64,000 nt of DNA from Fibrobacter sp. Its GTDB lineage: Bacteria; Fibrobacterota; Fibrobacteria; Fibrobacterales; Fibrobacteraceae. The stretch is from contig JAFPWY010000003.1 in NCBI GenBank assembly GCA_017412605.1, positions 1 through 64,000 of the forward strand, given 5' to 3'. Positions 46,642 to 61,861 of the stretch are shown in pieces; position 1 is the stretch's first letter, and each line of letters opens with the position of its first letter. A model generated the notes under the pieces. The model was not told where the DNA came from. It worked only from the letters and a program-made list of their open reading frames with translations, and did no database searches. The position numbers and the translations under genes are program-made.

Positions 46642-46909
46642 GATGCAAAAGCAATTTAGCTTTTTAACCTACCGCGGCGCTAGCGAGGTACGTGCAAAAA
46701 AACAGGTATGAAGCAGGATGAATGAGCGGATGTCGTCGCTATCGTTGGATAGGTTGAATGCTGTGTAAACATTCCGTAACATGAACGTATTTCTCTTTTT
46801 ACTTTATGTAAGCAATTCTTTTTTTTGACACCGAACATTTAATATATTTCGTTGCAGACTTTGGGCCGGCATGTCCGGTCTGACCTATGTTCATCAATAA
46901 AGGAAAAAT
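46642..46909. other. Intergenic region before the DsbA-like lipoprotein gene
   Basis: 268 bp between divergent genes. It contains TTGACA near 46828, an AT-rich block with TATATT near 46850 (spacing to the TTGACA is too short for a standard pair) and a CCGG-based hairpin (GGCCGG...CCGGTC) in the presumed 5' leader of the downstream gene. No gene seen. Confidence 0.5.
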
Positions 46910-47644
46910 ATGAAACACTTCTCTATCGTCGCCATGGCATTTCTCGTAGTCGGCTTGGTCGGTTGCAATCAGGCTTCTGCCGGTGGTTCGTTCAACCAGC
47001 AGGCTCGCCTGGACAGCCTTGAAAAGGATTTCAAGGTCGTCAAGGAAGAATTTGAAATCATCAAGTACGCTCTCGACAAGCGCGGCATCTCCCTGGAACA
47101 GGCCCGTGCCGAGATGGAAGCCGACAACAAGGTCTGGGACATTCCCGACGAAGACAGCCCGATTTTCGGCAATACCAAGGATCCGAAGCTCACCATCGTC
47201 GAGTTCACCGAATTCCAGTGCCCGTACTGCTCTCGTATCGCTCCCACGATGAAGGAACTCAACAACAAGTACCCGGACAAGATCAAGTTCGTCTACAAGC
47301 ACTTCCCGCTCAGCTTCCATGCTAACGCTCAGGCCGCTGCCGCTGCCTCCATCGCCGCTCACAAGCAGGGCAAGTTCTGGGAATTCCGCTATGCGCTCGC
47401 TCCGCACAGCCGCGAACTCAGCGATTCCATGTACATCGCCGTGGCTAAGGAAGTTGGCCTCGATATCGAAAAGTTCAAGAAGGACATGGTGCTCGACTCT
47501 GCTATGATGGCCCGCATCGACAAGGACTTCCAACTGGGTGTCAAGGTCGGCGTTCAGGGTACCCCGAACTTCTACATCAACGGCAAGCGTCAGGACCGCT
47601 TCTCTCCGGAACTGGTCGAAAAGCTCCTGAAGGAAGCCAAGTAG
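46910..47644 (+). CDS. DsbA-family thiol oxidoreductase lipoprotein, 244 aa
   Basis: Envelope thioredoxin-fold protein anchored as a lipoprotein (LVGLVGC, Cys19). A short coiled coil (about 30-60) precedes the DsbA-like domain. The active site is CPYC (Cys104-Cys107) in VEFTEFQCPYCSRI, an alpha-helical insertion follows, and the cis-proline loop is GVQGTPNFYINGK. It probably oxidises or isomerises disulfides in exported proteins, which are Cys-containing in several surface proteins here. AAAGGA precedes the ATG. Monocistronic, with its own terminator. Confidence 0.92.
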   Translation: MKHFSIVAMAFLVVGLVGCNQASAGGSFNQQARLDSLEKDFKVVKEEFEIIKYALDKRGISLEQARAEMEADNKVWDIPDEDSPIFGNTKDPKLTIVEFTEFQCPYCSRIAPTMKELNNKYPDKIKFVYKHFPLSFHANAQAAAAASIAAHKQGKFWEFRYALAPHSRELSDSMYIAVAKEVGLDIEKFKKDMVLDSAMMARIDKDFQLGVKVGVQGTPNFYINGKRQDRFSPELVEKLLKEAK

Positions 47645-47655
47645 CGTTTACAACT

Positions 47656-47692
47656 GTAACCGGTGGATTGTCCATCGGTTACGTCTTTTTTT
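47656..47692 (+). terminator. Terminator after the DsbA-like gene
   Basis: GTAACCGGTGG and CCATCGGTTAC arms (one G-U), then GTC and T7. Confidence 0.85.
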
Positions 47693-47748
47693 GTTGAAAA
47701 GAATATATTCTGGATAGATTTTAAAACACAAACCAAAGGATGCTAATC

Positions 47749-50700
47749 ATGATGAAGCAAACTATGAAGGTCGCCGCTATTGCCGCAATGGGCATGGCCG
47801 TGGCCGTAATGGCGCAGCCGAAGCAGCCGAAGACGGTCGTCTACAAGTTCTTTGACGAACAGTATCGTCAGGGCGGGTTCGACTATTCTTACGGTGGCAC
47901 GAGCAAGGGCGTCACGATTACCAAGGACGGCGGATACAAGTCCAAGGCCGCCCTGAACATCAAGCTGGACCCGAAGGAATATTCCGGTGCCTCCATCTGC
48001 TTGTATAACGAATTCTTCGACCTGAACAAGTTCATGCTCGATTCCAAGGTCGAGTTCATGATCAAGGGCAAGAACGGCGGCGAAAACGTCAAGATTGGCC
48101 TCCTCGACGAAGAAGTCAGCGACGGCAAGAAGACGCAGGTCGTGCTGCCCATGAACAAGTACATCCAGGGTGGTGCCGTGACGAAGGACTGGAAGAAGGT
48201 TTCCATTCCTCTCGTGGACTTCCCGGACCGTGGCCTTTACTGGGACAACACCCGCAAGTCCGAATTCCCGGCCCGTATCGACTGGGACAAGATTGCGGAA
48301 ATCCGTTTCTCCATCGACAAGAGCGGTGCTTCTGAATTTGAAATCTGGGTGGACAACATTGAAATCGTGAAGGGCAACAAGAAGGCCCCGCCGAAGAAGA
48401 AGGTTGTTTACTGGGATGAAAACAACGACGTCATCGACGGCCCGAAGAACCCCGAAAAGCTCGACGGCAAGGCCAAGACGCTCGCTACGTTCTACGACAA
48501 CCAGCTCAAGGGCTTCAGCTACAGCTACGGTGGCCTCACCGCCCAGCGCGAAGCTCAGTCCAAGACCCAGGGCAACAAGAACGTGCTCGCCATGTACATC
48601 GACAACAACGACTGGTCCGGTGTGACCTACTCGCTGGGCGAAGGCAAGTTCATCGACCTTTCCAAGGTCCGCAACAAGGGCGGTCTCTACTTCTGGATCA
48701 AGGGTAAGCTCGGCGGCGAAAAGCTGTACGTGGGTATCCTCGACAACCAGGGCAACGACGTGAAGAGCCAGACCAAGGTCGGTCTCAACGACTGGATCAA
48801 GGTCAGCAAGGATTGGCAGCTCGTCAAGATTCCTCTGAAGCGTTTCATGGACAAGGGCAAGGCTTGGGATGCTAACAAGCAGGCCGAAGTCGCCAAGGAC
48901 ATGAAGTGGAACAAGATCCAGGAAATCCGCTTCTCCGTGGGCAAGGGCGAAAACGCAGGCGAACCGGGCAAGCCGGCTCCTGTGACCGTCTTCGTCGACC
49001 AGATTACCTTCACCGAGAACATCGACTGGGTTGACCCGGACCTCAAGTGGGACAACTTCAAGTCTACGGCTAAGGATCTCGTGATTTCTGACTTCGAAGG
49101 CAAGTACGGCAGCGAGACCTGGGAACCGGCATTCGGCCCGAAGTCCCAGCTCAAGTTCAAGATCGAAAACTGCCCCGAATTCAAGAGCAACTGCTTGAAC
49201 ATCGAACACTACCTCCTCGCCGACTGGGTCGACGTCGTGCTCGACATGAACAAGCGCGGCCGTCCGGCTGCTGACCGCGACTGGACCAAGCACTGGGGCA
49301 TCATGTTCGACGTGTACTCCGAAAAGGCTTGGCAGTCCATCACCGTGCAGGTGCAGGACGCTGGCGACGAAATCTTCGTGTCTAACGTCGGTGCTCCGAA
49401 GGGCAAGACCACTCTGCTCGTGCCGTTCCGCACGTTCAGCAAGTTCCCGTATTACCAGCCGCCCCAGGCCAAGGAAAACGGCATCTTCGACCTGAAGGGT
49501 GTCGTCGCTCTTGACTTCAAGCCGAGTGGCGAAGGTACTGCTGGTGGCTTCAAAATCGACAACATCAGGCTCACCAACCAGCGCGAAGTCAAGGCCAAGG
49601 AACGCCCGGCCGTCATCAAGGTGGCCATCAAGGGCTCTAGCGACGTGCTCAACCCGGAAATCTCCGGCGGCCTGTTCGGCATCAACGCCGCCCTCTGGGA
49701 TGGCGACATGCTCGACAACAAGAACTTCAAGGTTCAGACTCGCGACTTCGTGAAGCGCATCAACCACGGTATCGTCCGTTATCCGGGTGGTCTCCGTGCT
49801 GATGACGACCACTGGAAGGAAATCCTCGACAACCACGACTGGATGGTCGACACCGACGAATTCCTCGAATGGTTGAAGAAGACCGGCTCCAACGCCATGT
49901 TCACCGTGAACTTCGGTTCCGGCACCGAACAGGAAGCTGCCGCTTGGGTGAAGCACACCAACATCGACAAGAAGGCCGGCATCCTCTACTGGGAAATCGG
50001 TAACGAAGTCTATGGTAACTGGCACCCGTACTACGAAAAGTATGGTAAGGACGGCGGTACCATCTATGGTAAGCGCGCCCGCAAGTTCATCGAAGCCATG
50101 AAGAAAGTCGACCCGACCATCAAGGTGGCTGTGCTCGGCGTTCTCGAAGGCGACTGGAACGAGAAGGTGCTCAAGGAAACCGGTGACATCGCTGACGGTC
50201 TTATCGTCCACCACTACCCGCAGCACTTCGGCGAAGAAAACGACTTCGCGCTCCTCTCTGCTCCGCAGACTCTCACCGCTATCTACGAACGCTTGCACAA
50301 GGTCGTGGACAAGTGGACTGCCCACTACAAGAAGGACAAGAAGATCGAACTCTGGCTCACCGAATGGAACTCTGTTGACTTCAACCCGGGCCCGCAGACT
50401 CTCTCTGTCGAGAACGGCTTGTTCGTCGCCGACTACCTCGGTATGCTCGCCACCGAAAACGTGGATAACGCCCAGTACTGGGATATCCACAACGACATCA
50501 CTCCGGAAGGCGGTGACTACGGTTACCTGACCCGTTCCGGTGAAAACTGCATGAACTGCCCGCGTCCGAGCTACTGGGCCTTCCAGATGGCTTCCGACGC
50601 TCTCCGCGGCAAGCTCATGAAGACGACGATTACCGGTGACGAAGATGCTCTCCTCACGGCCTACTACACCGTGAAGGGCAAGAAGAAGCAGCTGTTGCTC

Positions 50701-50907
50701 GTGAACAAGAGCCCCTACAGCGACTTCGACATCAAGCTCGACATCGAAGGCTTCAAGGGTAAGGCCAAGGTCCAGACTCTGGACAAGACCTCCGAAAAGC
50801 TGAAGGAAGGCTGGGCCAACGACCCGTCCAAGAAGTCGAAGACTGTCGATGTCTCCAAGGGCATCAAGGTCGGCAAGCGCACGCTGACCCTCATCACGAT
50901 CGACTAA
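47749..50907 (+). CDS. cel51A: GH51 endoglucanase with tandem carbohydrate-binding modules (endoglucanase F-like)
   Basis: Secreted multi-domain glycoside hydrolase, 1052 aa, matching the layout I know for Fibrobacter endoglucanase F (Cel51A/celF). Signal peptide MMKQTMKVAAIAAMGMAVAVMAQ; three CBM11/CBM30-like beta-sandwich modules (about 28-215, 235-430, 440-605), each ending in a VDNIEI/VDQITF/IDNIRL strand; the GH51 barrel (about 615-975) with acid/base Glu753 in YWEIGNEVYG and nucleophile Glu872 in WLTEWNS; and a C-terminal beta domain. No T9SS tail. AAGGA sits 8 nt before the ATG at 47749; the ATG at 47740 overlaps that site and is less likely. Codon choice is strongly biased (AAG, CTC, GAA, GGC/GGT), suggesting high expression. 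Substrate (glucan versus arabinan) is inferred from the homologue. Confidence 0.92.
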   Translation: MMKQTMKVAAIAAMGMAVAVMAQPKQPKTVVYKFFDEQYRQGGFDYSYGGTSKGVTITKDGGYKSKAALNIKLDPKEYSGASICLYNEFFDLNKFMLDSKVEFMIKGKNGGENVKIGLLDEEVSDGKKTQVVLPMNKYIQGGAVTKDWKKVSIPLVDFPDRGLYWDNTRKSEFPARIDWDKIAEIRFSIDKSGASEFEIWVDNIEIVKGNKKAPPKKKVVYWDENNDVIDGPKNPEKLDGKAKTLATFYDNQLKGFSYSYGGLTAQREAQSKTQGNKNVLAMYIDNNDWSGVTYSLGEGKFIDLSKVRNKGGLYFWIKGKLGGEKLYVGILDNQGNDVKSQTKVGLNDWIKVSKDWQLVKIPLKRFMDKGKAWDANKQAEVAKDMKWNKIQEIRFSVGKGENAGEPGKPAPVTVFVDQITFTENIDWVDPDLKWDNFKSTAKDLVISDFEGKYGSETWEPAFGPKSQLKFKIENCPEFKSNCLNIEHYLLADWVDVVLDMNKRGRPAADRDWTKHWGIMFDVYSEKAWQSITVQVQDAGDEIFVSNVGAPKGKTTLLVPFRTFSKFPYYQPPQAKENGIFDLKGVVALDFKPSGEGTAGGFKIDNIRLTNQREVKAKERPAVIKVAIKGSSDVLNPEISGGLFGINAALWDGDMLDNKNFKVQTRDFVKRINHGIVRYPGGLRADDDHWKEILDNHDWMVDTDEFLEWLKKTGSNAMFTVNFGSGTEQEAAAWVKHTNIDKKAGILYWEIGNEVYGNWHPYYEKYGKDGGTIYGKRARKFIEAMKKVDPTIKVAVLGVLEGDWNEKVLKETGDIADGLIVHHYPQHFGEENDFALLSAPQTLTAIYERLHKVVDKWTAHYKKDKKIELWLTEWNSVDFNPGPQTLSVENGLFVADYLGMLATENVDNAQYWDIHNDITPEGGDYGYLTRSGENCMNCPRPSYWAFQMASDALRGKLMKTTITGDEDALLTAYYTVKGKKKQLLLVNKSPYSDFDIKLDIEGFKGKAKVQTLDKTSEKLKEGWANDPSKKSKTVDVSKGIKVGKRTLTLITID

Positions 50908-50931
50908 TCGCTGAATCGCGAAAAAGGAATT

Positions 50932-50962
50932 GCCTCGCCGGAAAATCCCGGCGGGGCTTTTT
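50932..50962 (+). terminator. Terminator after the GH51 gene
   Basis: GCCTCGCCGG and CCGGCGGGGC arms (one G-U) around AAAATC, followed by T5. Confidence 0.88.
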
Positions 50963-51027
50963 GTATACTTTAAACCAGTCCTAAAAATGGTAGCTTACTC
51001 ATTTATGCGTTTAGGAGACAATAGCAA

Positions 51028-51765
51028 ATGAGAATTCTATTTATACTTGTTCTTATTCTTGCAGTAAATTCTTTTTCTATTGAGGAAATTGTACATGCGT
51101 TGAGCGTTCATTTTCCTGACGACATTTGGAATAAAGAATTACAAGCAGACCAGGCAGATGTTTGTAAAACATATTTACGTTCAAACGAGCGTAACGAGTT
51201 GTTTGCTTGTTCTAAAGAAACATGCCAAAGCATTTTAGATTCAAACATATTTATTCGCTATTATAATGAAATCAATGTTTTTGAATATTACGAAATTACA
51301 GGAGCAAAAAGAAGTATTGCGGAAGTATTGAAGGATGAACTGCAACATTATAACGAATGCATGTTCCTTACCTTAAACAAGGCCGAGATGGATACTTTGT
51401 TTTATCTCATTGATAGCCAACTTTCTCCGAAACTTGATTCCGCGGGATTGCTAAGCTTTGGCTACGAAGCTTGTTTTAAAGGAAACCGTAAATGCGTCAG
51501 CGAAGTTGTCGGCTCTCCTGTAAATGGCTCCGATTTGGTCGATAGTATTTTAAATGCTCGAAATGCAATTTTATTCGTTCCTGCAACTAAAGCGGAACGT
51601 GTCTTCTCGATTAATAATGATGGGGTCCTTGTTGTCCCTGATCAATTAAAGGGGAAGAAATATGCTATACTCAATTTGCAGGGAATTCTTATACAAGAAG
51701 GGGTTTTAGAGGGATCCATAACCATTCCCGTAGGGTGTAATATTTTTCATATTAGAGAAAGATGA
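51028..51765 (+). CDS. Secreted protein with T9SS-like tail, 3' end displaced by a mobile element
   Basis: Signal peptide MRILFILVLILAVNSFS and a mainly helical, Cys-containing domain (about 20-185; cysteines in VCKTY, FACSKETC, NECMF, EACFKGNRKC). The end (about 190-245: FSINNDGVLVVPDQLKGKKYAILNLQGILIQEGVLEGSITIPVGCNIFHI) resembles a T9SS type A sorting domain but stops early. The last codons are supplied by the left end of the element at 51761. If the element is removed, the frame continues as IREMKKNFLLKN and stops at 55508-55510, which gives the Lys-rich last strand such tails have. AT-rich relative to its left neighbours. Function of the main domain unknown. Confidence 0.72.
   Translation: MRILFILVLILAVNSFSIEEIVHALSVHFPDDIWNKELQADQADVCKTYLRSNERNELFACSKETCQSILDSNIFIRYYNEINVFEYYEITGAKRSIAEVLKDELQHYNECMFLTLNKAEMDTLFYLIDSQLSPKLDSAGLLSFGYEACFKGNRKCVSEVVGSPVNGSDLVDSILNARNAILFVPATKAERVFSINNDGVLVVPDQLKGKKYAILNLQGILIQEGVLEGSITIPVGCNIFHIRER
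51752..51760 (+). repeat. Left copy of 9-bp target duplication (TTAGAGAAA)
   Basis: TTAGAGAAA directly abuts the left end of the element and is repeated exactly at 55473-55481, directly after its right end. Confidence 0.8.
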
Positions 51766-51861
51766 TGTTATACATGACAGTTTATGCGGTTAGGCAGGGG
51801 TCTTGTGTAAACAATTTTGCCATTGAAACTGCGGAAATAAACATTGAAGTAAAACATCATC
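51761..51861 (+). repeat. Left 101-bp end repeat with 13-bp terminal inverted repeats
   Basis: Begins GATGATGTTATAC and ends with the inverse of GATGATGTTTTAC (12 of 13 match). It differs from the right copy by one base (51779 A versus 55390 T). With the preceding GAAA the match is 104 of 105. On the minus strand it holds a 30-codon open frame starting MMFYFNVYFRSF. Confidence 0.9.
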
Positions 51862-52182
51862 AAATCTATTACCCCCATCCCTATTAAATCCACAATTGCT
51901 GCTCAAAGTATACAACTCCGTCAGATTAATTCGTATTTTCCCGAAATTCGCAAAAAAAAAGGTCGCAAACACTGTTAAGTCAAACAGCTGCAACGGGCCG
52001 AATATTGATTTCACCGAAAGAACATCAATGCTACTTGAAAAAAATTTCGGAGGAGACTTACCAAGCGGGAAAGTTTTGCTAGGATAGTCCGAACGCATTG
52101 ATTGGTCATTTTTTGTAAAAACTAAAGCATTTTATTTCTAAAAAAACTATAATAGGAATAGAATAAACGCAGGAGTTTTGAA
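51862..52182. other. Non-coding AT-rich segment between left repeat and the restriction gene
   Basis: 321 bp without a supportable gene. Short frames on both strands (63 and about 100 codons, the latter running into the repeat) have no family features and no ribosome-binding site. It ends with the promoter/leader of the restriction-modification gene, in which CTATAATAGG near 52149 is a plausible -10 box. Confidence 0.55.
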
Positions 52183-55100
52183 ATGGCTGATGTCAAAAGT
52201 AAATCAATGAGTCTGGACGAACGAAAGGCGCTTGTGGCTCGTCTGGTCAAGCAATTTAGAGAAAACGAAAAATTTTACACCAGCAAAGACTTTGTTGAAG
52301 CTGAAGTTCGCAGCAAGTTTATTGACCCGTTTCTTGAAGCTCTTGCATGGGACGTGAAAAACGAAAAAGGAGCGCGTCACGATCGTCAAGAAGTTATTAC
52401 TGAAGATCGCGTTATAATATCGGGTCAAGTAAAGCATCCTGATTATACGCTTTGCTATGGTGGTGAACGTAAAATTTATGTTGAGGCGAAACAACCGAGC
52501 GTTGATTTAAAGAAAGACCCAGAGCCCGCACTTCAGGTTCGTCGCTATGCGTACACAAGCAAAATGCCTATCGCAATTCTGACTGATTTTCAAGAGTTGG
52601 CTATTTATGACACACGAATAAAGCCGAAGGCCAATGATACCGCAGCAACGGCAAGAATAGAATATTTGACATATCAGCAGTATGTGGAACATTTTGAAGA
52701 ACTTTTTGACCGGATTTCCTGGAATGCTGTTGACCTTGGAAAATTTGACACTTATTGGGAAACAAGCCGCGAAAAGAAGGGAACAGCTACAGTCGACAAA
52801 GACATCTTACAAATGATTGAAAAATGGCGAATCCTTCTAGCAGAAGACATCGCTTTACACAACGAAAATATTGATGCATTTAATTTGACAAGTGTCGTCC
52901 AGAAAATAATAGACCGTATATTATTCTTACGAATTTGCGAAGACAAGGAAATTGAAGATAGAAATACGCTCAAGAAAATTGCAGATACAAAATCTGATAT
53001 ATATAAGGCTTTGAAAAGCCTCTTTGCGACAGCGAATGCTAAGTTTAACGCAGGTCTTTTCGCTATTGATGAATATATTGATTCTCTTGAAATTCAAGAC
53101 AAAACGCTTGCAACGATTATAAATGAACTTTATTTCCCTAAATGTCAGTACGAATTTTCTGTTCTACCCGTTGAAATATTAGGATCCATTTACGAACGTT
53201 TTTTAGGAAAAGTAATACGCTTTATTAGAAAAACAAAAAATGGACATAGTATAGAGATTGTTGAAAAACCGGAAGTAAAGAAAGCGGGAGGAGTTTTTTA
53301 TACTCCGCCATACATTGTCCGTTATATAGTTAAGCAAACCATTGGTAAAAAGATTGAAGGAAAATCGCCAGAACAAGTCGCCAAGATGTGTTTTGTAGAC
53401 CCCGCCTGTGGAAGCGGAAGTTTCCTTGTTGGTGCTTATCAGTATCTTTTGGATTGGCATCTAAGCTACTATTTGGATGATGTTGATAAATATGAGAAAA
53501 AAGGCATAATCTATAAGGATGCGTATACTCAGGATTACAAACTCAGCATAGAAACAAAACGTAAGATTCTTTTGAATAATATTTATGGCGTCGATATAGA
53601 CGCACAAGCAGTCGAAGTCACGAAATTATCGCTCTTTTTAAAACTTTTGGAAAATGAAGGCCGATCACTGAGTTCAACGGGACAGGTTCAACTTTTCCGA
53701 ACATCTGACATCAACGCTAAAATTTTGCCAAGCTTGATGAATAATATAAAATGTGGAAACTCGCTCATTGGTTCAGATTTTTATGAAGAAAAGGATCTGT
53801 CGCTATTCAGTGTCGATGATCAACGTAAAGTTAATACGTTTGATTGGGAAGAGGAATTTTCGCAAGTGTTTAAAAACGGAGGTTTTGACTGCGTTATAGG
53901 AAACCCACCGTATTTACGTGTTCAAGATTTACGCGAAAATTATGAGGAAGAGTCTAAATTCTATGAACAAAAATATAAGAGTGCTACAGGTAGGTTTGAT
54001 TTCTATGTTTTGTTTATGGAACGGGGCTTTTCTTTACTAAATAAAAACGGAATACTCTCGTATATTCTTCCGCATAAGTTTATCAATTCCGATTTTGGGA
54101 TCGGAATCCGCGATTTTATTTACGATAATAAAGCCCTACATTATCTAGTGCATTTTGGTGCAGAACAGGTTTTTGAAAAGGCAAAAGTTTACACTTGCAT
54201 TGTCGGACTTTCCCATGGAAATAAAGCCTTTGATTATGCTCAGCTAAAGCCAAAAGAAATTGAAGTTGATGTACAATTCGGAAACATCAATTACAAAACG
54301 CTTTCTGATGTCAAAAAATGGAGCTTTCAGGATAAAAGCAAAGCGACGATAATTGATAAAATGAGAAAACAACCTATTGTTTTAAAGAATATCATAAAAA
54401 AATGCAGTCAAGGAACTGTAAGTATGGGGGATGACTTGCAAGTAATGCAAGGACATTTTGAAGGAAAGTTTTTTATAGGTTTTTCCGACAGGCTAAAAAA
54501 AGAAATTAAGTTAGAAAAGAATATTATGAAGCCCCTATTAGTTGGAGAAAATGTAAAACGATATGCCGTCTTAAAAAATACGTTCTATGAAATATATCCT
54601 CATCATCTCGTTAAAGGAAAAACCGTTCCTTATGAAGAAAATGAGATGAAAACTCTTTTCCCACTGACTTATGAGTATCTTTTACCATTTAAAAAAGAAT
54701 TAAAAGAAAAAAAAGTCAAATACAAGACGAATACGAAATATTGGTATACTTTGCATCGTTCTAGGGATATGAATATGTTTGAGCAGCCGAAAATTATTAC
54801 TGCCGAAATATCGTTAGGCTGTAATATGACTTATGATACAGGAAATCTTTATCATAACACAAAATGTTATACCATTTTGTTTGATGAAAAGCACCAGAAG
54901 AATGTAATGGCGTATCTTGCTATTTTGAATTCAAATGTACTTTGGTTTTTCCTTTCCCAGACGGGTTATGTTTTGGGTGGGGGATTTTTCTGCTTTAAAA
55001 CAAAATATCTTGAACCCTTCCCACTTCCAGAATTAGATGAATCAAGTTCACCAAAGCTTTCGTCTCTTGCAGAACAACAACTTGCCGTTCACAAACAACT

Positions 55101-55236
55101 ATCTTCTGCAAAATCCGACTCTGATAAAAAACTTTTAGAACAGCGCATTCAAATTTTGGATACGCAAATCAATTCAGAGGTTTACAAACTATATGGATTA
55201 ACAGATGAAGAAATAAAAATTATCGAACAAAAATAG
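52183..55236 (+). CDS. Type IIG (Eco57I-like) restriction-modification enzyme, 1017 aa
   Basis: Single-chain restriction endonuclease and adenine methyltransferase. N-terminal PD-(D/E)XK nuclease: DYTLCYGG then KIYVEAKQPS (Asp...Glu-x-Lys) at about residues 87-105. A helical linker follows. Methyltransferase: GVFYTPPYIVRYIVKQTIG, motif I FVDPACGSGSFLVGAYQYLL, NIYGVDIDAQAVEVTKLSL, and motif IV CVIGNPPYLRVQ. The C-terminal 350 residues form a TaqI-like target-recognition domain, ending in a coiled-coil segment. All key motifs look intact. AGGAG lies 8 nt before the ATG. Strongly AT-rich compared with core genes, and located inside the composite element, so acquired horizontally. No separate specificity or restriction subunit is needed. 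Confidence 0.93.
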   Translation: MADVKSKSMSLDERKALVARLVKQFRENEKFYTSKDFVEAEVRSKFIDPFLEALAWDVKNEKGARHDRQEVITEDRVIISGQVKHPDYTLCYGGERKIYVEAKQPSVDLKKDPEPALQVRRYAYTSKMPIAILTDFQELAIYDTRIKPKANDTAATARIEYLTYQQYVEHFEELFDRISWNAVDLGKFDTYWETSREKKGTATVDKDILQMIEKWRILLAEDIALHNENIDAFNLTSVVQKIIDRILFLRICEDKEIEDRNTLKKIADTKSDIYKALKSLFATANAKFNAGLFAIDEYIDSLEIQDKTLATIINELYFPKCQYEFSVLPVEILGSIYERFLGKVIRFIRKTKNGHSIEIVEKPEVKKAGGVFYTPPYIVRYIVKQTIGKKIEGKSPEQVAKMCFVDPACGSGSFLVGAYQYLLDWHLSYYLDDVDKYEKKGIIYKDAYTQDYKLSIETKRKILLNNIYGVDIDAQAVEVTKLSLFLKLLENEGRSLSSTGQVQLFRTSDINAKILPSLMNNIKCGNSLIGSDFYEEKDLSLFSVDDQRKVNTFDWEEEFSQVFKNGGFDCVIGNPPYLRVQDLRENYEEESKFYEQKYKSATGRFDFYVLFMERGFSLLNKNGILSYILPHKFINSDFGIGIRDFIYDNKALHYLVHFGAEQVFEKAKVYTCIVGLSHGNKAFDYAQLKPKEIEVDVQFGNINYKTLSDVKKWSFQDKSKATIIDKMRKQPIVLKNIIKKCSQGTVSMGDDLQVMQGHFEGKFFIGFSDRLKKEIKLEKNIMKPLLVGENVKRYAVLKNTFYEIYPHHLVKGKTVPYEENEMKTLFPLTYEYLLPFKKELKEKKVKYKTNTKYWYTLHRSRDMNMFEQPKIITAEISLGCNMTYDTGNLYHNTKCYTILFDEKHQKNVMAYLAILNSNVLWFFLSQTGYVLGGGFFCFKTKYLEPFPLPELDESSSPKLSSLAEQQLAVHKQLSSAKSDSDKKLLEQRIQILDTQINSEVYKLYGLTDEEIKIIEQK

Positions 55237-55371
55237 TTGGCTAGTTCTAGAAGTGGTCTTTATTGCAAAAAAAATGTTGGTTCGAAAAAAAAACGTGCCA
55301 ACATTTTAAAGTATCACTGTATATTGTATGGACTTACTACAAATGCTTGCGGTTGAAGTTTTGTACTGAAA
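55237..55371. other. Non-coding segment after the restriction gene with an inverted repeat
   Basis: AT-rich, no gene. AAAATGTTGG (55271-55280) pairs perfectly with CCAACATTTT (55298-55307) around a 17-nt loop; it may end the restriction-modification transcript. Confidence 0.55.
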
Positions 55372-55472
55372 GATGATGTTATACATGACTGTTTATGCGG
55401 TTAGGCAGGGGTCTTGTGTAAACAATTTTGCCATTGAAACTGCGGAAATAAACATTGAAGTAAAACATCATC
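55372..55472 (+). repeat. Right 101-bp end repeat with 13-bp terminal inverted repeats
   Basis: Direct copy of 51761-51861 with one difference. Its right edge CATCATC is followed at once by the second TTAGAGAAA. Confidence 0.9.
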
Positions 55473-55481
55473 TTAGAGAAA
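55473..55481 (+). repeat. Right copy of 9-bp target duplication (TTAGAGAAA)
   Basis: Exact copy of 51752-51760. A 9-bp duplication is a usual size for several DDE transposase families. Confidence 0.8.
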
Positions 55482-55510
55482 TGAAAAAGAATTTTTTATT
55501 AAAGAACTAG
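55482..55510 (+). pseudogene. Detached 3' end of the secreted-protein gene at 51028
   Basis: Joined in frame to 51028-51760 (sharing TTAGAGAAA), this gives the codons for MKKNFLLKN and a TAG stop at 55508-55510. It has no start site of its own in this context beyond the reconstituted ATG at 55481. Confidence 0.65.
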
Positions 55511-55526
55511 TTTGCCCAAAGAAATC

Positions 55527-55550
55527 GCCCCGGCAATTGCCGAGGCTTTT
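55527..55550. terminator. Terminator shared by the restored secreted-protein gene and glgB
   Basis: GCCCCGGC-AATT-GCCGAGGC (one G-U) followed by TTTTCTT on + and GATTTCTTT on the minus strand. It lies 17 nt after the original stop at 55510 and 22 nt after glgB. Confidence 0.75.
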
Positions 55551-55571
55551 CTTGTATTCAAATTGTTGCTG

Positions 55572-57788
55572 TTACCTTTCCAGCCTGAAGAACACGGCTG
55601 CGAGCGGCGGGAGCTTGATGTTCAGGCTGCAATCGCGGTTCTGCCACGGGACGTCCTGCGTCCAGACTTCACCGAAGTTGCCGACGTTACTGCCGCCGAA
55701 CATGTCGGAATCCGTGTTGAAGATTTCCTTCCACTTGCCGCGCGTGGGCGCGCCCAGGCGGTAGTTGTAGCGGACCACTGGCGTGAAGTTGAACACGCAC
55801 AAGATTTGGTTCCCGTGGTCGTCTTTACGGACAAACGAAACAATGGAGTTGTCGGCGTCGTCGCACCAGATCCATTCGAAACCGGTGTAGTAGTGGTCGA
55901 TTTCCCAGAACGGTGCGTTTTCCTTGTACAGGTGGTTCAGCACCTTCATCATCTGCAAGAGCTTTCCGTGGCTGTCCCAGCTGACCAGGTGCCAGTCGAG
56001 CGACTGCTTCTCGTTCCATTCGCGGAACTGCCCGAATTCGTTGCCCATGAAGTTGAGCTTCTTGCCCGGGTGCGCGTACTGGAATGCGTAGGTGAGGCGG
56101 AGGTTCGCGAACTTCTGCCAGTTGTCGCCGGGCATCTTGCCCAGCATGGAACCCTTGCCGTGCACCACTTCGTCGTGGCTGAACACCTGGATGAAGTTCT
56201 CGCTGTAGGCGTAAACCATGCTGAAGGTGAGCTGGTTGTGGTGGTACTTGCGGTGGATAGGTTCGTGCTCGATGTAGCTCAGGAAGTCGTTCATCCAGCC
56301 CATGTTCCACTTGTAGTGGAAGCCGAGACCGCCCTGCTCCGGCGGGCGCGTGATGGAGGGGAAACTTGTGGATTCCTCGGCGATGAGGATGGCGTGCGGC
56401 GTGAGGCGGCCCATGATGCTGTTCAGGTGCTTCAGGAACTCGATGGTGTCGTAGTTGATGTTGCCGCCGTCCTTGTTCGGGACCCACTGGCCGGGGCCCT
56501 TGCCGTAGTCGAGGTAGAGCATGGAGGCGACCGCGTCTACGCGGAGGCCGTCGCAGTGGAATTCCTTGAGCCAGTACATCGCGTTCGCGATGAGGAAGTT
56601 CTTGACTTCGTTTCGACCGAGATTAAAGATGTAGGTGCCCCAGTGCGGGTGTTCGCCCTGGCGCGGGTCGGCGTGCTCGTAGCAGGCGGTGCCGTCAAAG
56701 CGGCCGAGCGCGTGCGCGTCCTTGGGGAAGTGTGCGGGGACCCAGTCGAGAATCACGCCGATTTCGGCCTGGTGGCACAGGTCCACGAAGTGCCTGAACT
56801 GGTCGGGGGTGCCGTAGCGGCTGGTGGGGGAATAGTATCCCGTCACCTGGTAGCCCCAGGATTCGTCGAGCGGGTGCTCGGCGAGCGGCAGGAATTCCAC
56901 GTGGGTGTAGCCCATTTCCTTGAGGTAGGGGATGAGGCGTTCGGAAAGCTCGTCCCAGTCGAGGAAGCGGTCGGGGTTGGCCGGGTCGCGGCGCCAGGAA
57001 CCGGCGTGGACTTCGTAGATGTTCATGGGCGAGCCGAAAACCTTGGTGGCCCAGTGAGTCTTCATGTAAAGGTCGTCGCCCCATTCGTAGCCGTCGAGGT
57101 GCGTGGTGATGGAGGCGGTTGCCGGGCGCACTTCGCTGAGTTTCGCGAGCGGGTCCACTTTCACGTGGAGGTTTCCGTCGGCGCCGTGGATTTCGAAACG
57201 GTAGAGTTCGCCTTCGCCGAGGTTCGGGATGAAGATTTCCCAGATGCCGGAACTGCCGAGCATGCGCATCTGGTGGCGGCGCCCGTCCCAGCTATTGAAG
57301 TTGCCGACGACGGAAACGGCCTTGGCGTTGGGGGCCCAGACTGCGAACTGCACGCCCTTGAAACCCTGGTGTTCCACGAGGTTCGCGCCGAGCTTGCGGT
57401 AGAGCTCGTAGTGCGTGCCGGTGGCGATGAGGTGTCTGTCGAATTCGGAGAGGACCGGCTGGAATGCGTACGGGTCAGTGAGTTTGTACTCGTTGCCGTC
57501 GTCCTGCTTGATGACAAGGTTGTAGAAGAAGGGCTTGAATTCGATGTCGAGGATGGCCTCGAAGAACCCGGTGTCGCCGAGCTTGACGAAATCGAACTCG
57601 ACTTCGCCGTCGATGGATTCACCGCGGACGAATCTCGCTTGCGGCTGGTACGTGCGTATGGCGGTCTTGATGCCACGATCCGTTTCGAGCGGGTGAATAC
57701 CCAGCACGTCGAACGGGTCCTTGCAGTAAAAGTCCCAGATGGGGAGCATCTGCTCCCTAGTCAAGCTTGTAAAATCGGTCCATTCCAT
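55572..57788 (-). CDS. glgB: 1,4-alpha-glucan branching enzyme
   Basis: Makes the alpha-1,6 branches of glycogen, a major storage polymer of Fibrobacter. 738 aa. N-terminal domain GIHPLE...R, the CBM48 region (GVQFAVWAPNAKAVSVVGNFNSWDGRRHQM), then a GH13 barrel with nucleophile Asp418 in GLRVDAVASMLYLDYG, acid Glu471 in LIAEESTSFP, and the late HDEVVHGKGSMLGKMPGD. Length is typical. The frame is open another 267 nt upstream across the cytochrome gene on the other strand, but the family start and an AAAGAG support MEWTDF at 57788. TATATT boxes lie in the AT-rich gap to the divergent cytochrome cluster. Confidence 0.96.
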   Translation of the reverse strand: MEWTDFTSLTREQMLPIWDFYCKDPFDVLGIHPLETDRGIKTAIRTYQPQARFVRGESIDGEVEFDFVKLGDTGFFEAILDIEFKPFFYNLVIKQDDGNEYKLTDPYAFQPVLSEFDRHLIATGTHYELYRKLGANLVEHQGFKGVQFAVWAPNAKAVSVVGNFNSWDGRRHQMRMLGSSGIWEIFIPNLGEGELYRFEIHGADGNLHVKVDPLAKLSEVRPATASITTHLDGYEWGDDLYMKTHWATKVFGSPMNIYEVHAGSWRRDPANPDRFLDWDELSERLIPYLKEMGYTHVEFLPLAEHPLDESWGYQVTGYYSPTSRYGTPDQFRHFVDLCHQAEIGVILDWVPAHFPKDAHALGRFDGTACYEHADPRQGEHPHWGTYIFNLGRNEVKNFLIANAMYWLKEFHCDGLRVDAVASMLYLDYGKGPGQWVPNKDGGNINYDTIEFLKHLNSIMGRLTPHAILIAEESTSFPSITRPPEQGGLGFHYKWNMGWMNDFLSYIEHEPIHRKYHHNQLTFSMVYAYSENFIQVFSHDEVVHGKGSMLGKMPGDNWQKFANLRLTYAFQYAHPGKKLNFMGNEFGQFREWNEKQSLDWHLVSWDSHGKLLQMMKVLNHLYKENAPFWEIDHYYTGFEWIWCDDADNSIVSFVRKDDHGNQILCVFNFTPVVRYNYRLGAPTRGKWKEIFNTDSDMFGGSNVGNFGEVWTQDVPWQNRDCSLNIKLPPLAAVFFRLER

Positions 57789-57867
57789 ACGTGTCTCTTT
57801 CTTGTGTGTTTCTTTGTAAAAAATATAAATATATTTACATAGTATCCGAGTTTTCAAGGGAATTTCT

Positions 57868-58239
57868 TTGACAAAGGTATCGAGGACATACTGGCTGGTA
57901 CTCCTGCTCGCCTGCGGGATTTTTGCCGTGGACGTGTTCGTGCTGCCCGACGTGACGCCGGAACTCAAGTCCAGCGCCTCCGAGTTCTTCAACAACGAGT
58001 GTAAGGGGTGCCACCGGTGGGCGCGCAAGTTCGCGGCCCCGCCCATGCGCGACAACGTGCAGCACTATGCCAGCGACCCTGCCGCGATGGTTGAATACCT
58101 TAAACACCCGACTCCGCAGCATCCGGACGAATGGCCCGCGATGGAAATTACTCCGCTGACGGAGGAGCAGGCGAAGATGATGACCGCCTGGCTTCTGTAC
58201 ATCCTCAAGAACCCGGACGATCCGGGGAGGCCGAAATAG
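57868..58239 (+). CDS. Membrane-anchored monoheme cytochrome c, 123 aa
   Basis: First gene of the electron-transfer cluster. An uncleaved or signal-type N-terminal helix (YWLVLLLACGIFAVDVFVL) is followed by a small cytochrome c domain with one heme site, CKGCH, and a distal Met candidate (PAMEITPLTEEQ). The start is TTG at 57868, backed by AAGGGAA at good spacing. The next gene begins 10 nt downstream. Confidence 0.82.
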   Translation: MTKVSRTYWLVLLLACGIFAVDVFVLPDVTPELKSSASEFFNNECKGCHRWARKFAAPPMRDNVQHYASDPAAMVEYLKHPTPQHPDEWPAMEITPLTEEQAKMMTAWLLYILKNPDDPGRPK

Positions 58240-58249
58240 GGATGGCGCC

Positions 58250-58774
58250 ATGAAGTGGTCTCTCGTTGCCCTCGTTGCGCTGCTGTGCGCCTTTTTCCTC
58301 GCGGATTTGCTGATGAACCGCGTCGCGGAACCGACGCGTCGCGGTGACGGTGCAGCCGTACCCTTTGTGCACGCGATGCACGGGGATTCCATCGGGCTCC
58401 CGTGCAGCGCCTGCCATACGGGCGCCTTTGCCGCCGCCAGGGCGTACCTGCCCTCGAAGGCGGATTGCATGGACTGCCACCGTTTGCCGCTTACCGAGGG
58501 CGCCGGTATCGAGGCGCTCGATTCGGCTTTGTCGAAGGCCCCGGGACATCCCTGGTCGCGGAAGTCCTCGTTGCCCGAACACGTGGTGTTCCACCACGGA
58601 GTCCACCATAGCGCCGGTGTGGCCTGCGCGGATTGCCACGGCACCGGCTACGCGAAGGACGTGTACGGGGGAGAAAGGTTTGACATGCGGACTTGCCTGG
58701 ACTGTCACCGCGGAAAGACGTTCCGGGATAAGAATTTCAAGGCCGCGGTATATTGCGCGGCGTGTCATCGGTAG
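58250..58774 (+). CDS. Pentaheme cytochrome c (ActA/cytochrome c3-like), 174 aa
   Basis: Periplasmic multiheme cytochrome anchored by an N-terminal helix (SLVALVALLCAFFLADLL). Five CXXCH sites are visible: CSACH, CMDCH, CADCH, CLDCH and CAACH, the last at the very C-terminus. Extra histidines (HGVHHSAG) can be axial ligands. A pentaheme cytochrome beside an ActB-type iron-sulfur protein and an NrfD-like protein matches subunit A of Alternative Complex III and related quinol:electron-acceptor complexes. Confidence 0.88.
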   Translation: MKWSLVALVALLCAFFLADLLMNRVAEPTRRGDGAAVPFVHAMHGDSIGLPCSACHTGAFAAARAYLPSKADCMDCHRLPLTEGAGIEALDSALSKAPGHPWSRKSSLPEHVVFHHGVHHSAGVACADCHGTGYAKDVYGGERFDMRTCLDCHRGKTFRDKNFKAAVYCAACHR

Positions 58775-58785
58775 GGTTTATGGGT

Positions 58786-59655
58786 ATGGATCGGCGTGAA
58801 TTTATCAAGTGGTGTTCCTTGCTGGCCGTGGGCTCGATGCTCGGCGGCTGCCGCAAGCTGCCCTTCGTGGGCGACGCCGCGAAGAAGGACCTGCCTTCGT
58901 TCAAGATGTTCGAGGCCGAGGTCCGGCGCGCTATGTCGATGCCTTCGCACAGGATGGAGCTGGTGCGCGTCTCGATGCCTGGCCGGCTCAATCGGCCCGG
59001 CGCTTCCGACGAGAACCGATTTGGCATGGCCATCGATCTTGATGCGTGCGATGGTTGCGGCAAGTGTATTTTGGCTTGCATCCAGGAAAACAATATCCCC
59101 CTGGTGACCGAAGACGAGGCCGCGAAGGGGAGGTTCATGCACTGGATAGAGATGCGCGGCGGAGTGCCGTTCATGTGCGCCCATTGCGGGAATGCTCCTT
59201 GCGAAAGGGCTTGCCCGACGGGGGCGGCGAACCATACGCCCGACGGCCTGAGCGCCATGATGTACAAGCGCTGCACCGGGAGCCGTTATTGCGGCGCGAA
59301 CTGCCCGGAACATGCGCGCAAGTTCAATTTCAACGATGCGGTGCAGCAGGGGCTTTCGCTGAAGTTCAACGACAAGGTGCCCGTGCGTAGTAAGGGCGTC
59401 ATGGAAAAATGCTCGCTCTGCCTGCATAGGCTGCAAGACGACCGCCTGGCAGTCAAGACGGCTGGCGGTGTCTGGCGCGGCCGTGGCGTGAAGACCGCCT
59501 GCGCCGAGGCCTGTCCCAAGAAAGCCATTGTATTCGGTAACTGGCTCGACCCGGATTCCCCGCTCGTGAAGGTGGCGCGTCGCCGCGACTTGTACGCTCC
59601 GGCAGATCTCGCTGGCCTTGATCCCTCGATTGTCTACATGATGGGGGGTAAGTAG
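58786..59655 (+). CDS. Four-cluster iron-sulfur subunit (ActB C-terminal/NrfC-like), 289 aa
   Basis: Exported electron-transfer subunit. The N-terminus DRREFIKWCSLLAVGSMLGGC has a twin-arginine motif and a possible lipobox Cys22. Cysteine sets: 88/91/94/98, 131/134/139/143, 163/169/173 (CTGSRYCGANCP) and 209/212/239/243. The third set lacks one cysteine, as in ActB-type proteins (CxGxRYC...NCP), which predicts a [3Fe-4S] cluster. The closest family is the iron-sulfur half of ActB, here as a separate protein. The ATG at 58786 has AGGG at 9 nt; the ATG at 58780 is too near that site. No catalytic molybdopterin-type domain is fused. Confidence 0.87.
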   Translation: MDRREFIKWCSLLAVGSMLGGCRKLPFVGDAAKKDLPSFKMFEAEVRRAMSMPSHRMELVRVSMPGRLNRPGASDENRFGMAIDLDACDGCGKCILACIQENNIPLVTEDEAAKGRFMHWIEMRGGVPFMCAHCGNAPCERACPTGAANHTPDGLSAMMYKRCTGSRYCGANCPEHARKFNFNDAVQQGLSLKFNDKVPVRSKGVMEKCSLCLHRLQDDRLAVKTAGGVWRGRGVKTACAEACPKKAIVFGNWLDPDSPLVKVARRRDLYAPADLAGLDPSIVYMMGGK

Positions 59656-61418
59656 TGGTCCGCATCCTCTTCATCGTTTTTCTCTGCCTGCTTGTCCCGG
59701 GGCTTGCGTCCATGGGATATTCGTTGTGGCAGGGGCCCGCGGCATGGTCCGTGGACACGGGAGTGTTCTGGGGGCTGCCCATAAGCCTGTTCGTGTTCTG
59801 GATTGGCCTTGCCCACGCGGGGACGCTGATTTCGGCGATTTTCCTCGTTCTCGATGTCAAGATGGAACGCCGCACGTCTATCCTCGCCGAACTTGCGACG
59901 CTGTGCTCGCTTGCCGTGGCGGTCATCTTTCCGTTGATGCATCTCGGCGTCATCGAGAATTTCTACATGGTCGCCCCGTACATGGATTCCCGGGGAAGCA
60001 TGGCCAACGTGTGCTCCCCGCTGGTGTGGGATTTCTGCTGCATACTGGCCTATGGCTTTTTGTCCGTCGTCTATCTTGTCGTCCACATGCTCTCCGAAAA
60101 GTCGCCCGTGGCGGCCTCGATTCACCGTCCCCTGGCCTGGCTCCTTTTCCCCATGGTCCTCTGGGTGCATACTGTCGTGAGTCTCGATTTCGCGGCGACG
60201 TTTGTCCCGGCATGGCGCGGTGCGTTCTTCCCGGTTTACTTTATCGTGGGTGCGGTGTTCTCGGGGCTTGCGATGGTGAACATCATGCTCTGTGGCGAGG
60301 GCTACCGGATGCGCCAGCTCGAAAAGCTCATGCTGGTGGGCTCGTGGTTCCTGGGCGCGTTCCTGTTGTGGGACTGGGCGCTCAAGGGTGACTTGAATGT
60401 CGTCGTGCTTATTTTCGCCGTTTTGCTTCCGCAGTTCTGGTTTGTCTCCGCCATTCGCGAATCGACCTTGGGCCGTGTTCTGGTCGCGTCTTCCGTCCTT
60501 GTCGGCATGCTTCTCGAGCGTGTTTTCCTCGTTTTCCCGTCGGGCGGCTCGGGAATCGGCTGGGTCGACCTGGGCCTGGTCTGCTTCGGTTTCGGCCTGT
60601 TCGGGGTAATCTTCCTCGTTGCGCGCCTCAAGCTTTCCCGCCTGATCGAGGGCGAGGAAGTGCTGATGGGCGAGGTGGATGAGACGGCGTCGGCTGTCGC
60701 CCCTGCCGGTCGCAGGACCTATTTCCCTCCGTTCACGACTCCCGAGTTCAGGGCGCTCCGGTTTCCGCTTTTGTTGGGGATTCTCTCGTGCGTTTTGTTC
60801 CTTGTCTGGGTCGTCGGAAGCCTCGAAGAAAATGGCGTTGCGTTCACTGATGCCAACCTTGTTCCGCTGACATGCCCTATCGTCACGGCCGTGGCAGGCT
60901 TCGTGCTTTGCTTGCGCCCGCTGGTGATGTACATCGGCAAGGTCGGCGGTGCCTTGTTAGTCGTGTTGGCTGCTGCTTTCGGCATCGTTGCCGCCATGTT
61001 CTATTCGGAGCCGCTTTCCGCCCCGTCGGGTGCTGTGGTCAGCAGTACGGGAGACATGTTCGACGTCAATGCTTTGCCGGATTCTACTTCTGCGCTGGAT
61101 TCCGTGGCCGTAATTCGCACAAAGGCCGTGTTCGAGGCGCGTTGCGCCGGGTGCCACGGTGCCGACGGCCGCCTGAACGAGAAGTTTGTCCGTGAATACT
61201 ATCCGGTCCCGCAGAATTTGGATTTGGCCCGGATGGATGCTCTCGGGGAAGATTCGCTCGTGAACGTTGTCCTTAACGGCAGGACGAACATGAATCCCTA
61301 TTCGGGCCGGGTCAGCCCGCAGATGGCCCGTGGGCTGGTCCGCTACATGCGCCTGCTCGCCGAAAATGCCCGTGAAGACAGTGTCCGCGCGAAGGCCGGC
61401 GAAGGAGGTGGACCATGA
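59655..61418 (+). CDS. NrfD/PsrC-like quinol-interacting membrane protein fused to cytochrome c, 587 aa
   Basis: About ten to twelve membrane helices followed by a periplasmic cytochrome c domain. The first ~320 residues resemble NrfD/ActC (GLPISLFVFWIGLAHAGTLISAIFLVLDVKMERRTS, and LWVHTVVSLDFAATFVPAWR, the quinol-site region). A loop and three or four more helices follow (about 365-460), then a cytochrome c domain (about 495-570) with CAGCH and distal Met in NPYSGRVSPQM. The start is GTG overlapping the upstream stop. The fusion combines the roles of ActC and ActE in one chain. Confidence 0.85.
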   Translation: MVRILFIVFLCLLVPGLASMGYSLWQGPAAWSVDTGVFWGLPISLFVFWIGLAHAGTLISAIFLVLDVKMERRTSILAELATLCSLAVAVIFPLMHLGVIENFYMVAPYMDSRGSMANVCSPLVWDFCCILAYGFLSVVYLVVHMLSEKSPVAASIHRPLAWLLFPMVLWVHTVVSLDFAATFVPAWRGAFFPVYFIVGAVFSGLAMVNIMLCGEGYRMRQLEKLMLVGSWFLGAFLLWDWALKGDLNVVVLIFAVLLPQFWFVSAIRESTLGRVLVASSVLVGMLLERVFLVFPSGGSGIGWVDLGLVCFGFGLFGVIFLVARLKLSRLIEGEEVLMGEVDETASAVAPAGRRTYFPPFTTPEFRALRFPLLLGILSCVLFLVWVVGSLEENGVAFTDANLVPLTCPIVTAVAGFVLCLRPLVMYIGKVGGALLVVLAAAFGIVAAMFYSEPLSAPSGAVVSSTGDMFDVNALPDSTSALDSVAVIRTKAVFEARCAGCHGADGRLNEKFVREYYPVPQNLDLARMDALGEDSLVNVVLNGRTNMNPYSGRVSPQMARGLVRYMRLLAENAREDSVRAKAGEGGGP

Positions 61419-61861
61419 CCCCGCTGATGTCCTCGCTCGCTTGCGTGATGGCACTCGCCCAGGCGTTCTTCCTGTGGCGCGGCAAGATCAGCCTCCTCAA
61501 GGAAGGCTTGCTGCTGTTCGGCTTCTTCGTCATCTCGTGCGTGTTCACGTTGCTTGTGGGTTCACCGAACGACCCGCAGCTTGAACATTACCCGCTGCAG
61601 ATGCTCGCGCTTTGCCTGTGCTTCTCGACCACGTCTTTGCCGCGCTATCGAAGGCGCTACCTCGTGATGGCGCAGGCGCTCTGGTTCTGGGTTGTCTTGT
61701 TTGGCGGTATTTCGCTTGCCTATCGGGGTATAGAATTCCCTTGGGCTCGGGCGCTCGCCATATTGGCGCTGTGTTGCTGTAGTACGCTGCTATCCAGGAT
61801 TTCGAAGGAAATGGAATTCTGCCTGATGGTGTTCTGGATAGCCATCTGGATTTTGTTCTAG
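61415..61861 (+). CDS. Small membrane protein of the electron-transfer cluster, 148 aa
   Basis: Four or five hydrophobic helices with few charged residues; no heme or cluster motif. GGAGGTGG precedes the ATG, which overlaps the upstream stop (ATGA), so it is translated with the NrfD-like gene. It may be a structural membrane subunit like the small subunits of Alternative Complex III. Not recognised by sequence. Confidence 0.75.
   Translation: MTPLMSSLACVMALAQAFFLWRGKISLLKEGLLLFGFFVISCVFTLLVGSPNDPQLEHYPLQMLALCLCFSTTSLPRYRRRYLVMAQALWFWVVLFGGISLAYRGIEFPWARALAILALCCCSTLLSRISKEMEFCLMVFWIAIWILF

What the first reader, a model, noticed from the sequence alone, without database searches (positions are those of the whole stretch)
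51752..55481. Composite-transposon-like unit that moves a lone restriction-modification gene
Two direct 101-bp repeats (100 of 101 identical), each with 13-bp terminal inverted repeats, enclose one Type IIG enzyme gene. The whole 3712-bp unit is bracketed by an exact 9-bp direct repeat, TTAGAGAAA. The inner flanks of each copy do not match the outer flanks, so a single composite insertion explains the data better than two separate insertions. There is no transposase inside, so short non-autonomous (MITE-like) ends appear to have carried a defence gene. I do not know of this arrangement being described for Fibrobacter.
Basis: seen in the sequence. Interest (0 to 1): 0.88.

Follow-up and report, generated by a model that had tools for sequence, protein, structure and literature searches.

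The report
MITE-bounded unit carrying a restriction gene
A bacterial restriction enzyme gene has been inserted into a Fibrobacter chromosome as a small mobile unit with a 101-base transposon-like sequence at each end; the same ends carry other single genes in related strains, and two of those units hold rearranged genes that point to capture through circles or tandem duplication.

Summary
Two directly repeated 101-bp elements (100/101 identical) enclose a lone Type IIG restriction-modification gene, and the 3712-bp unit lies between exact 9-bp repeats, TTAGAGAAA. A related genome (G020) has the collinear empty site; relative to it the insertion is the unit plus 9 bp, with two substitutions inside the target. 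The composite-insertion reading is supported. The 101-bp repeat is a Fibrobacter-family MITE: single copies with their own 9-bp duplications exist, and a scan of 1.47 Mb of held loci for matching ends plus a 9-bp duplication returned exactly five gene-carrying units (0.8-3.7 kb), each with a different payload, only one an obvious defence gene. No autonomous partner or IS1 transposase was found. MITE-bounded composites are a known kind (TIME-COMP, IMU); this one makes 9-bp duplications, so it is probably not Tn3-derived. The unexpected result lies outside the window. In two units the payload is also bordered inside by an identical 9-bp repeat, and MITE-free relatives carry the same DNA circularly permuted through that 9-bp site. 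Those units therefore arose through a DNA circle or a tandem duplication. The window unit lacks the inner repeat, and its payload has no relative to test.

The parts
51752..51760 (+). left copy of the 9-bp target duplication TTAGAGAAA
   Evidence: sequence; empty site in G020
51761..51861 (+). MITE copy 1 (101 bp, direct orientation)
51862..52182 (+). payload: non-coding region upstream of the R-M gene
   Evidence: no relative in 111 family genomes
52183..55236 (+). Type IIG restriction-modification gene, 1017 aa
   Evidence: Pfam, PADLOC
55271..55307 (+). possible terminator stem AAAATGTTGG...CCAACATTTT downstream of the R-M gene
   Evidence: read from the sequence; not listed by the simple scan, which allows loops of 3-8 only
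55372..55472 (+). MITE copy 2 (101 bp, direct orientation)
55473..55481 (+). right copy of the 9-bp target duplication TTAGAGAAA
51028..51765 (+). interrupted accessory gene: the unit replaces its last codons (HIRER-stop here; the empty site reads on to LKKNFLLKN-stop)

Best explanation
51761-55472 is a composite, non-autonomous transposable unit. Two copies of a 101-bp Fibrobacter MITE bound a complete Type IIG R-M gene. A transposase supplied from elsewhere recognised the outermost GATGATGTT ends and inserted the whole 3.7-kb unit in one event into the 3' end of an accessory gene, duplicating 9 bp of target. Shown here: anatomy, target duplication, empty site, family-wide recurrence with other payloads. 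Inferred: that a trans-acting transposase did it, that the move was one step, and that the enzyme is active. The transposase family is unknown.
For: Exact outer 9-bp repeat and collinear empty site in G020. A scan of 1.47 Mb of held loci for these ends plus a 9-bp duplication (up to 5 TIR mismatches and 1 TSD mismatch allowed) returned only five units, all with perfect ends: window TTAGAGAAA 3712 bp, G077 TATATTTAT 2379 bp, G020 TTTATATTA 1780 bp, G101 TTTGCTTTA 815 bp, and G046 with 8/9, 1421 bp. The empty site of the G020 unit is present with a single TTTATATTA in seven other genomes, the window's own genome among them. Single MITEs with their own 9-bp duplications exist. In the window the inner flanks differ, as expected when a composite is built from separate MITE insertions. 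Payload GC is 36% against 56-58% in the core genes on either side.
Against: No transposase or autonomous element with these ends was found, so the move itself is inferred. The last two bases of the target differ in the only empty site (ATC against AAA). The interrupted gene is itself AT-rich (36% GC), so low GC of the payload proves little about origin. Outer duplications cannot exclude a resident MITE that later acquired the payload by integration of a circle.
Confidence: 0.68

Rival explanations
1. A single MITE inserted first at TTAGAGAAA; later a circular molecule carrying the R-M gene and a MITE fused with it, by homologous recombination between the MITEs or by replicative cointegration. 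The outer duplication then dates from the single MITE.
For: Two sister units carry a footprint compatible with this route: identical 9-bp repeats inside (G020 TTAAATAAA, G101 TTTTCATAA) as well as outside, and payloads circularly permuted relative to MITE-free relatives. A 2026 paper proposes the same for MITESen1 (PMC13367494).
Against: The window unit has no inner 9-bp repeat, and no single-MITE allele of this site was found; the only relative with the locus is empty.
Confidence: 0.25
2. Two independent MITE insertions happened to flank an R-M gene that was already at this site.
For: The inner flanks differ from each other.
Against: Independent insertions would each show their own 9-bp pair; neither copy has one, while the outer flanks match exactly, and the related genome lacks the gene altogether at this site.
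Confidence: 0.02
3. The 101-bp repeat is a regulatory element or small RNA and not a mobile end.
For: It is conserved over its whole length (about 75-100%) and folds slightly better than shuffles (z -1.8 to -3.3 as DNA), which its inverted ends explain.
Against: Target duplications around singles and units, empty sites, variable neighbours, no Rfam match; no promoter pattern above chance in the region.
Confidence: 0.02

Closest known systems
TIME-COMP: composites bounded by Tn3-derived miniature elements (PMC4133298, PMC13367494)
   Same: Two MITEs, often in direct orientation, bound unrelated genes without a transposase; the whole unit is flanked by target duplications; sizes about 1-11 kb.
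   Different: 9-bp duplications here against 5-6 bp; different ends; chromosomes of rumen Fibrobacter rather than resistance plasmids of Enterobacteriaceae; payload a Type IIG R-M gene or lipoprotein genes.
Integron mobilization unit (IMU), as summarised in PMC13367494
   Same: MITE pair mobilising a passenger, transposase in trans demonstrated experimentally.
   Different: IMU ends are Tn3-derived and inverted, and carry blaGES-5.
IS-bounded composite or pseudo-compound transposons and IS26 translocatable units (PMC7986276, PMC11102541)
   Same: Direct repeats with payload between them; circles with one end copy can rejoin at another copy.
   Different: Here the ends are 101-bp elements without a transposase gene, and the duplication is 9 bp (8 bp for IS26, from general knowledge).

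Membership tests
MITE | short (<500 bp), terminal inverted repeats, no transposase gene, multi-copy, fixed-length target duplication | tested here: met
   101 bp; 12/13 TIR; up to 5 matches per genome; matches in 30 of 80 genus genomes; 9-bp duplications of single copies
MITE | autonomous relative with the same ends (expected, not strictly required) | tested here: inconclusive
   no opposed pair of ends with a transposase among 16 genomes searched by pattern or 1.47 Mb scanned; not exhaustive
Composite transposon (generic) | two end elements plus payload flanked as a whole by one target duplication | tested here: met
   TTAGAGAAA both sides; empty site in G020
Composite transposon (generic) | movement by a transposase | not testable with these tools
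   needs a transposition assay
TIME-COMP (Tn3-derived) | 5-bp (sometimes 6-bp) direct repeats | tested here: not met
   9 bp in all cases found; 5-6 bp per PMC13367494
IS1-derived element | IS1 transposase in the same genomes (considered because of the 9-bp duplication) | tested here: not met
   PF03400: 0 of 80 genus genomes; positive controls matched
Type IIG restriction-modification enzyme | fused nuclease, N6-adenine methylase and specificity domains in one chain | tested here: met
   HSDR_N 77-147, Eco57I 465-664, TaqI_C 783-948; PDLC03604 residues 13-1013
Type IIG restriction-modification enzyme | restriction and methylation activity | not testable with these tools
   needs expression and methylation-aware sequencing

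The most novel reading that the evidence does not exclude
In Fibrobacter a 101-bp MITE acts as a general gene-capture device: it fuses with small DNA circles (or transposes out of tandem duplications) of chromosomal genes from other species, leaving units of the form S9-MITE-U9-gene-U9-MITE-S9, which work like a cassette system without an integrase. The R-M unit in the window would be one cassette among many.
Probability: 0.35. Interest if true: 0.75.

Novelty: new variant of a known kind. Interest (0 to 1): 0.56.

Why it matters
It gives a clean natural case, with an empty site, of a minimal element without its own transposase carrying a restriction-modification gene into a chromosome, in a genus for which the paper searches here found no such report. 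The permuted payloads of two sister units are direct sequence evidence that single chromosomal genes pass through a circle or tandem duplication before MITE-linked relocation, a step that was only hypothesised for MITESen1 composites.

Tried and rejected
IS1 as the transposase source: 0 of 80 genomes. An autonomous element: pattern scan of 16 genomes and TIR+TSD scan of 1.47 Mb, none. MITE in viral contigs: two patterns, none; in plasmids: none. Donor of the R-M payload: no close protein relative in the genus (best 64% over 175 aa in G041); best plasmid match 33% over 94% of the protein, phage matches about 26% over parts of it; non-coding payload unmatched in 111 genomes, so circular permutation could not be tested for the window. 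Inner 9-bp repeat in the G046 unit: none; its right inner side (payload position 1059-1217) is a separate multi-copy repeat, so the original inner flank is probably lost. RNA-family reading: no Rfam match. Idea that the system is specific for defence genes: rejected, payloads are mixed.

Full report
OBSERVATION. Two direct 101-bp copies lie at 51761-51861 and 55372-55472 and differ at one base. Their ends are GATGATGTTATAC and the complement of GATGATGTTTTAC. The unit 51761-55472 (3712 bp) is bracketed by TTAGAGAAA at 51752-51760 and 55473-55481. Inner flanks differ from each other and from the outer ones. A random exact 9-bp match near such ends is expected about 8.5e-6 of the time. The only large ORF inside, 52183-55236, is a full-length Type IIG enzyme; its 77-147 stretch matches the Type I R N-terminal nuclease domain, and the sequence shows DPACGSG and NPPY methylase motifs.

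EMPTY SITE. A query made of the two flanks joined at one TTAGAGAAA hit one other genome of the genus end to end at 99%: G020 contig C70. That contig is collinear with window 46834-51758 and 55468-61701. At the join it reads CATATTAGAGATCTGAAAAAAAATTTT, so the insertion accounts for the unit plus exactly 9 bp, with two substitutions in the last two target bases. Since both window copies read AAA, the simplest order is substitution first, then duplication. The unit truncates the accessory gene 51028-51765 by its last few codons.

THE REPEAT IS A MITE FAMILY. The repeat, or a part of it, was matched in 30 of 80 genus genomes, the window's own included, and in one genome (G101) placed in another genus of the same family, one of whose copies is 100% identical to copies in genus 1. 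A pattern scan of the 85,000-species collection returned only records labelled Fibrobacter. It was not found in viral contigs or plasmids. Two single copies carry their own 9-bp duplications, AATATTCTA and TTCAGCCAT. Many other single copies show no duplication and no partner; they are probably old or rearranged. No Rfam family matches.

UNITS. A scan of 1.47 Mb of held loci for opposed ends 0.3-5 kb apart (up to five TIR mismatches) and a 9-bp duplication (up to one mismatch) gave exactly five hits, all with perfect ends: the window; G077 (2379 bp; left end reduced to 46 bp; payload a Fib_succ_major lipoprotein and an ORF6N protein); G020 (1780 bp; an unknown protein with a signal-like start and a Fib_succ_major protein); G101 (815 bp; one small lipoprotein-like ORF); G046 (1421 bp, 8/9; a maltose acetyltransferase-like protein). 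G039 has a further, decayed pair around a UDG-like and an HNH protein. Defence is thus one payload type among several. The held loci were mostly chosen because they carry the MITE, so this count is not an unbiased census.

RECIPROCAL EMPTY SITES. The G020 target is empty, with a single TTTATATTA, in seven other genomes, the window's genome G000 among them.

UNEXPECTED RESULT: PERMUTED PAYLOADS. In the G020 and G101 units the payload is flanked on the inside, too, by an exact 9-bp repeat: TTAAATAAA...TTAAATAAA and TTTTCATAA...TTTTCATAA. The payload DNA occurs without the MITE in other genomes, and there its two ends are joined through a single copy of that 9-mer. For G101, G010 holds a contiguous 605-bp block at 89.6% once the payload is opened at its position 41 and one 9-mer is dropped; G043 and G007 hold 556 bp, and G070, G054, G022 and G008 hold the stretch around the join. 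For G020, G072 holds a contiguous 1.6-kb block at 97%, and G070 and G018 about 1.07 kb across the join. The breakpoints lie elsewhere: a 1-base microhomology in G101 (CCACAA|TTTGCC) and an imperfect direct repeat of about 30 bp in G072. So a linear chromosomal segment was closed on itself and opened again at the MITE insertion point. Two routes fit. (a) A circle of the segment fused with a MITE, by replicative cointegration or by homologous recombination with a resident MITE. (b) A MITE inserted in the donor, the segment was tandemly duplicated, and the composite MITE-payload-MITE transposed. The data do not separate these.

WHAT THIS MEANS FOR THE WINDOW. The window unit has outer but no inner repeats, and its payload has no relative at DNA level in 111 family genomes except the 3' end of a related enzyme in G041 (75% over 288 bp) and a few short matches. 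One-step transposition of a composite is therefore preferred (0.68); entry of a circle at a resident MITE remains possible (0.25).

MECHANISM STATUS. Shown: anatomy, duplications, empty sites, permutation in two sister units. Inferred: a transposase in trans. Its family is unknown; IS1 was tested and is absent, and Tn3 is unlikely because known TIMEs make 5-6 bp duplications (PMC13367494).

KNOWN CONTEXT. MITE-bounded composites were described in Pseudomonas (PMC4133298) and in resistance plasmids (PMC13367494); the latter also reports a TIME244 cointegrate and proposes circle integration at MITESen1. A search for Fibrobacter with MITE found no such report in the open-access library. The case is filed as a new variant of a known kind.

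Noticed in passing
L066:7133-7178, L067:7534-7579, L068:2717-2762, L069:7507-7552, L070:2827-2872, L050:3280-3325: A right-end fragment of the MITE with the same flanks next to the same ORF in six genomes: an old, decayed copy at a shared position.
   Followed up: partly
L040:9535-9693 (payload position 1059-1217 of the G046 unit): A separate repeat of about 159 bp, in one or more copies in several Fibrobacter genomes (94-99% identical), sits beside the right MITE of the G046 unit.
   Followed up: no
L050:11532-11598: A repeat of about 67 bp from the G020 payload recurs in several genomes (G036 99%, G003 94%) and overlaps the direct repeat at the closure point.
   Followed up: partly
L045:7205-8260: A single MITE with duplication AATATTCTA lies beside a GIY-YIG protein matching PADLOC UzuA, with a second left-end-like sequence about 1 kb on.
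   Followed up: partly
G000:C11:162844-162944 (L004:4845-4945): A third, 78% identical MITE copy in the window's own genome, without a clear duplication, between large ORFs, one with an ATPase-like N-terminus.
   Followed up: no
window 51028-55481: The interrupted gene and the unit are both about 36% GC in a 54% GC window; the gene was matched by DNA end to end in only one other genome of the genus, G020.
   Followed up: partly
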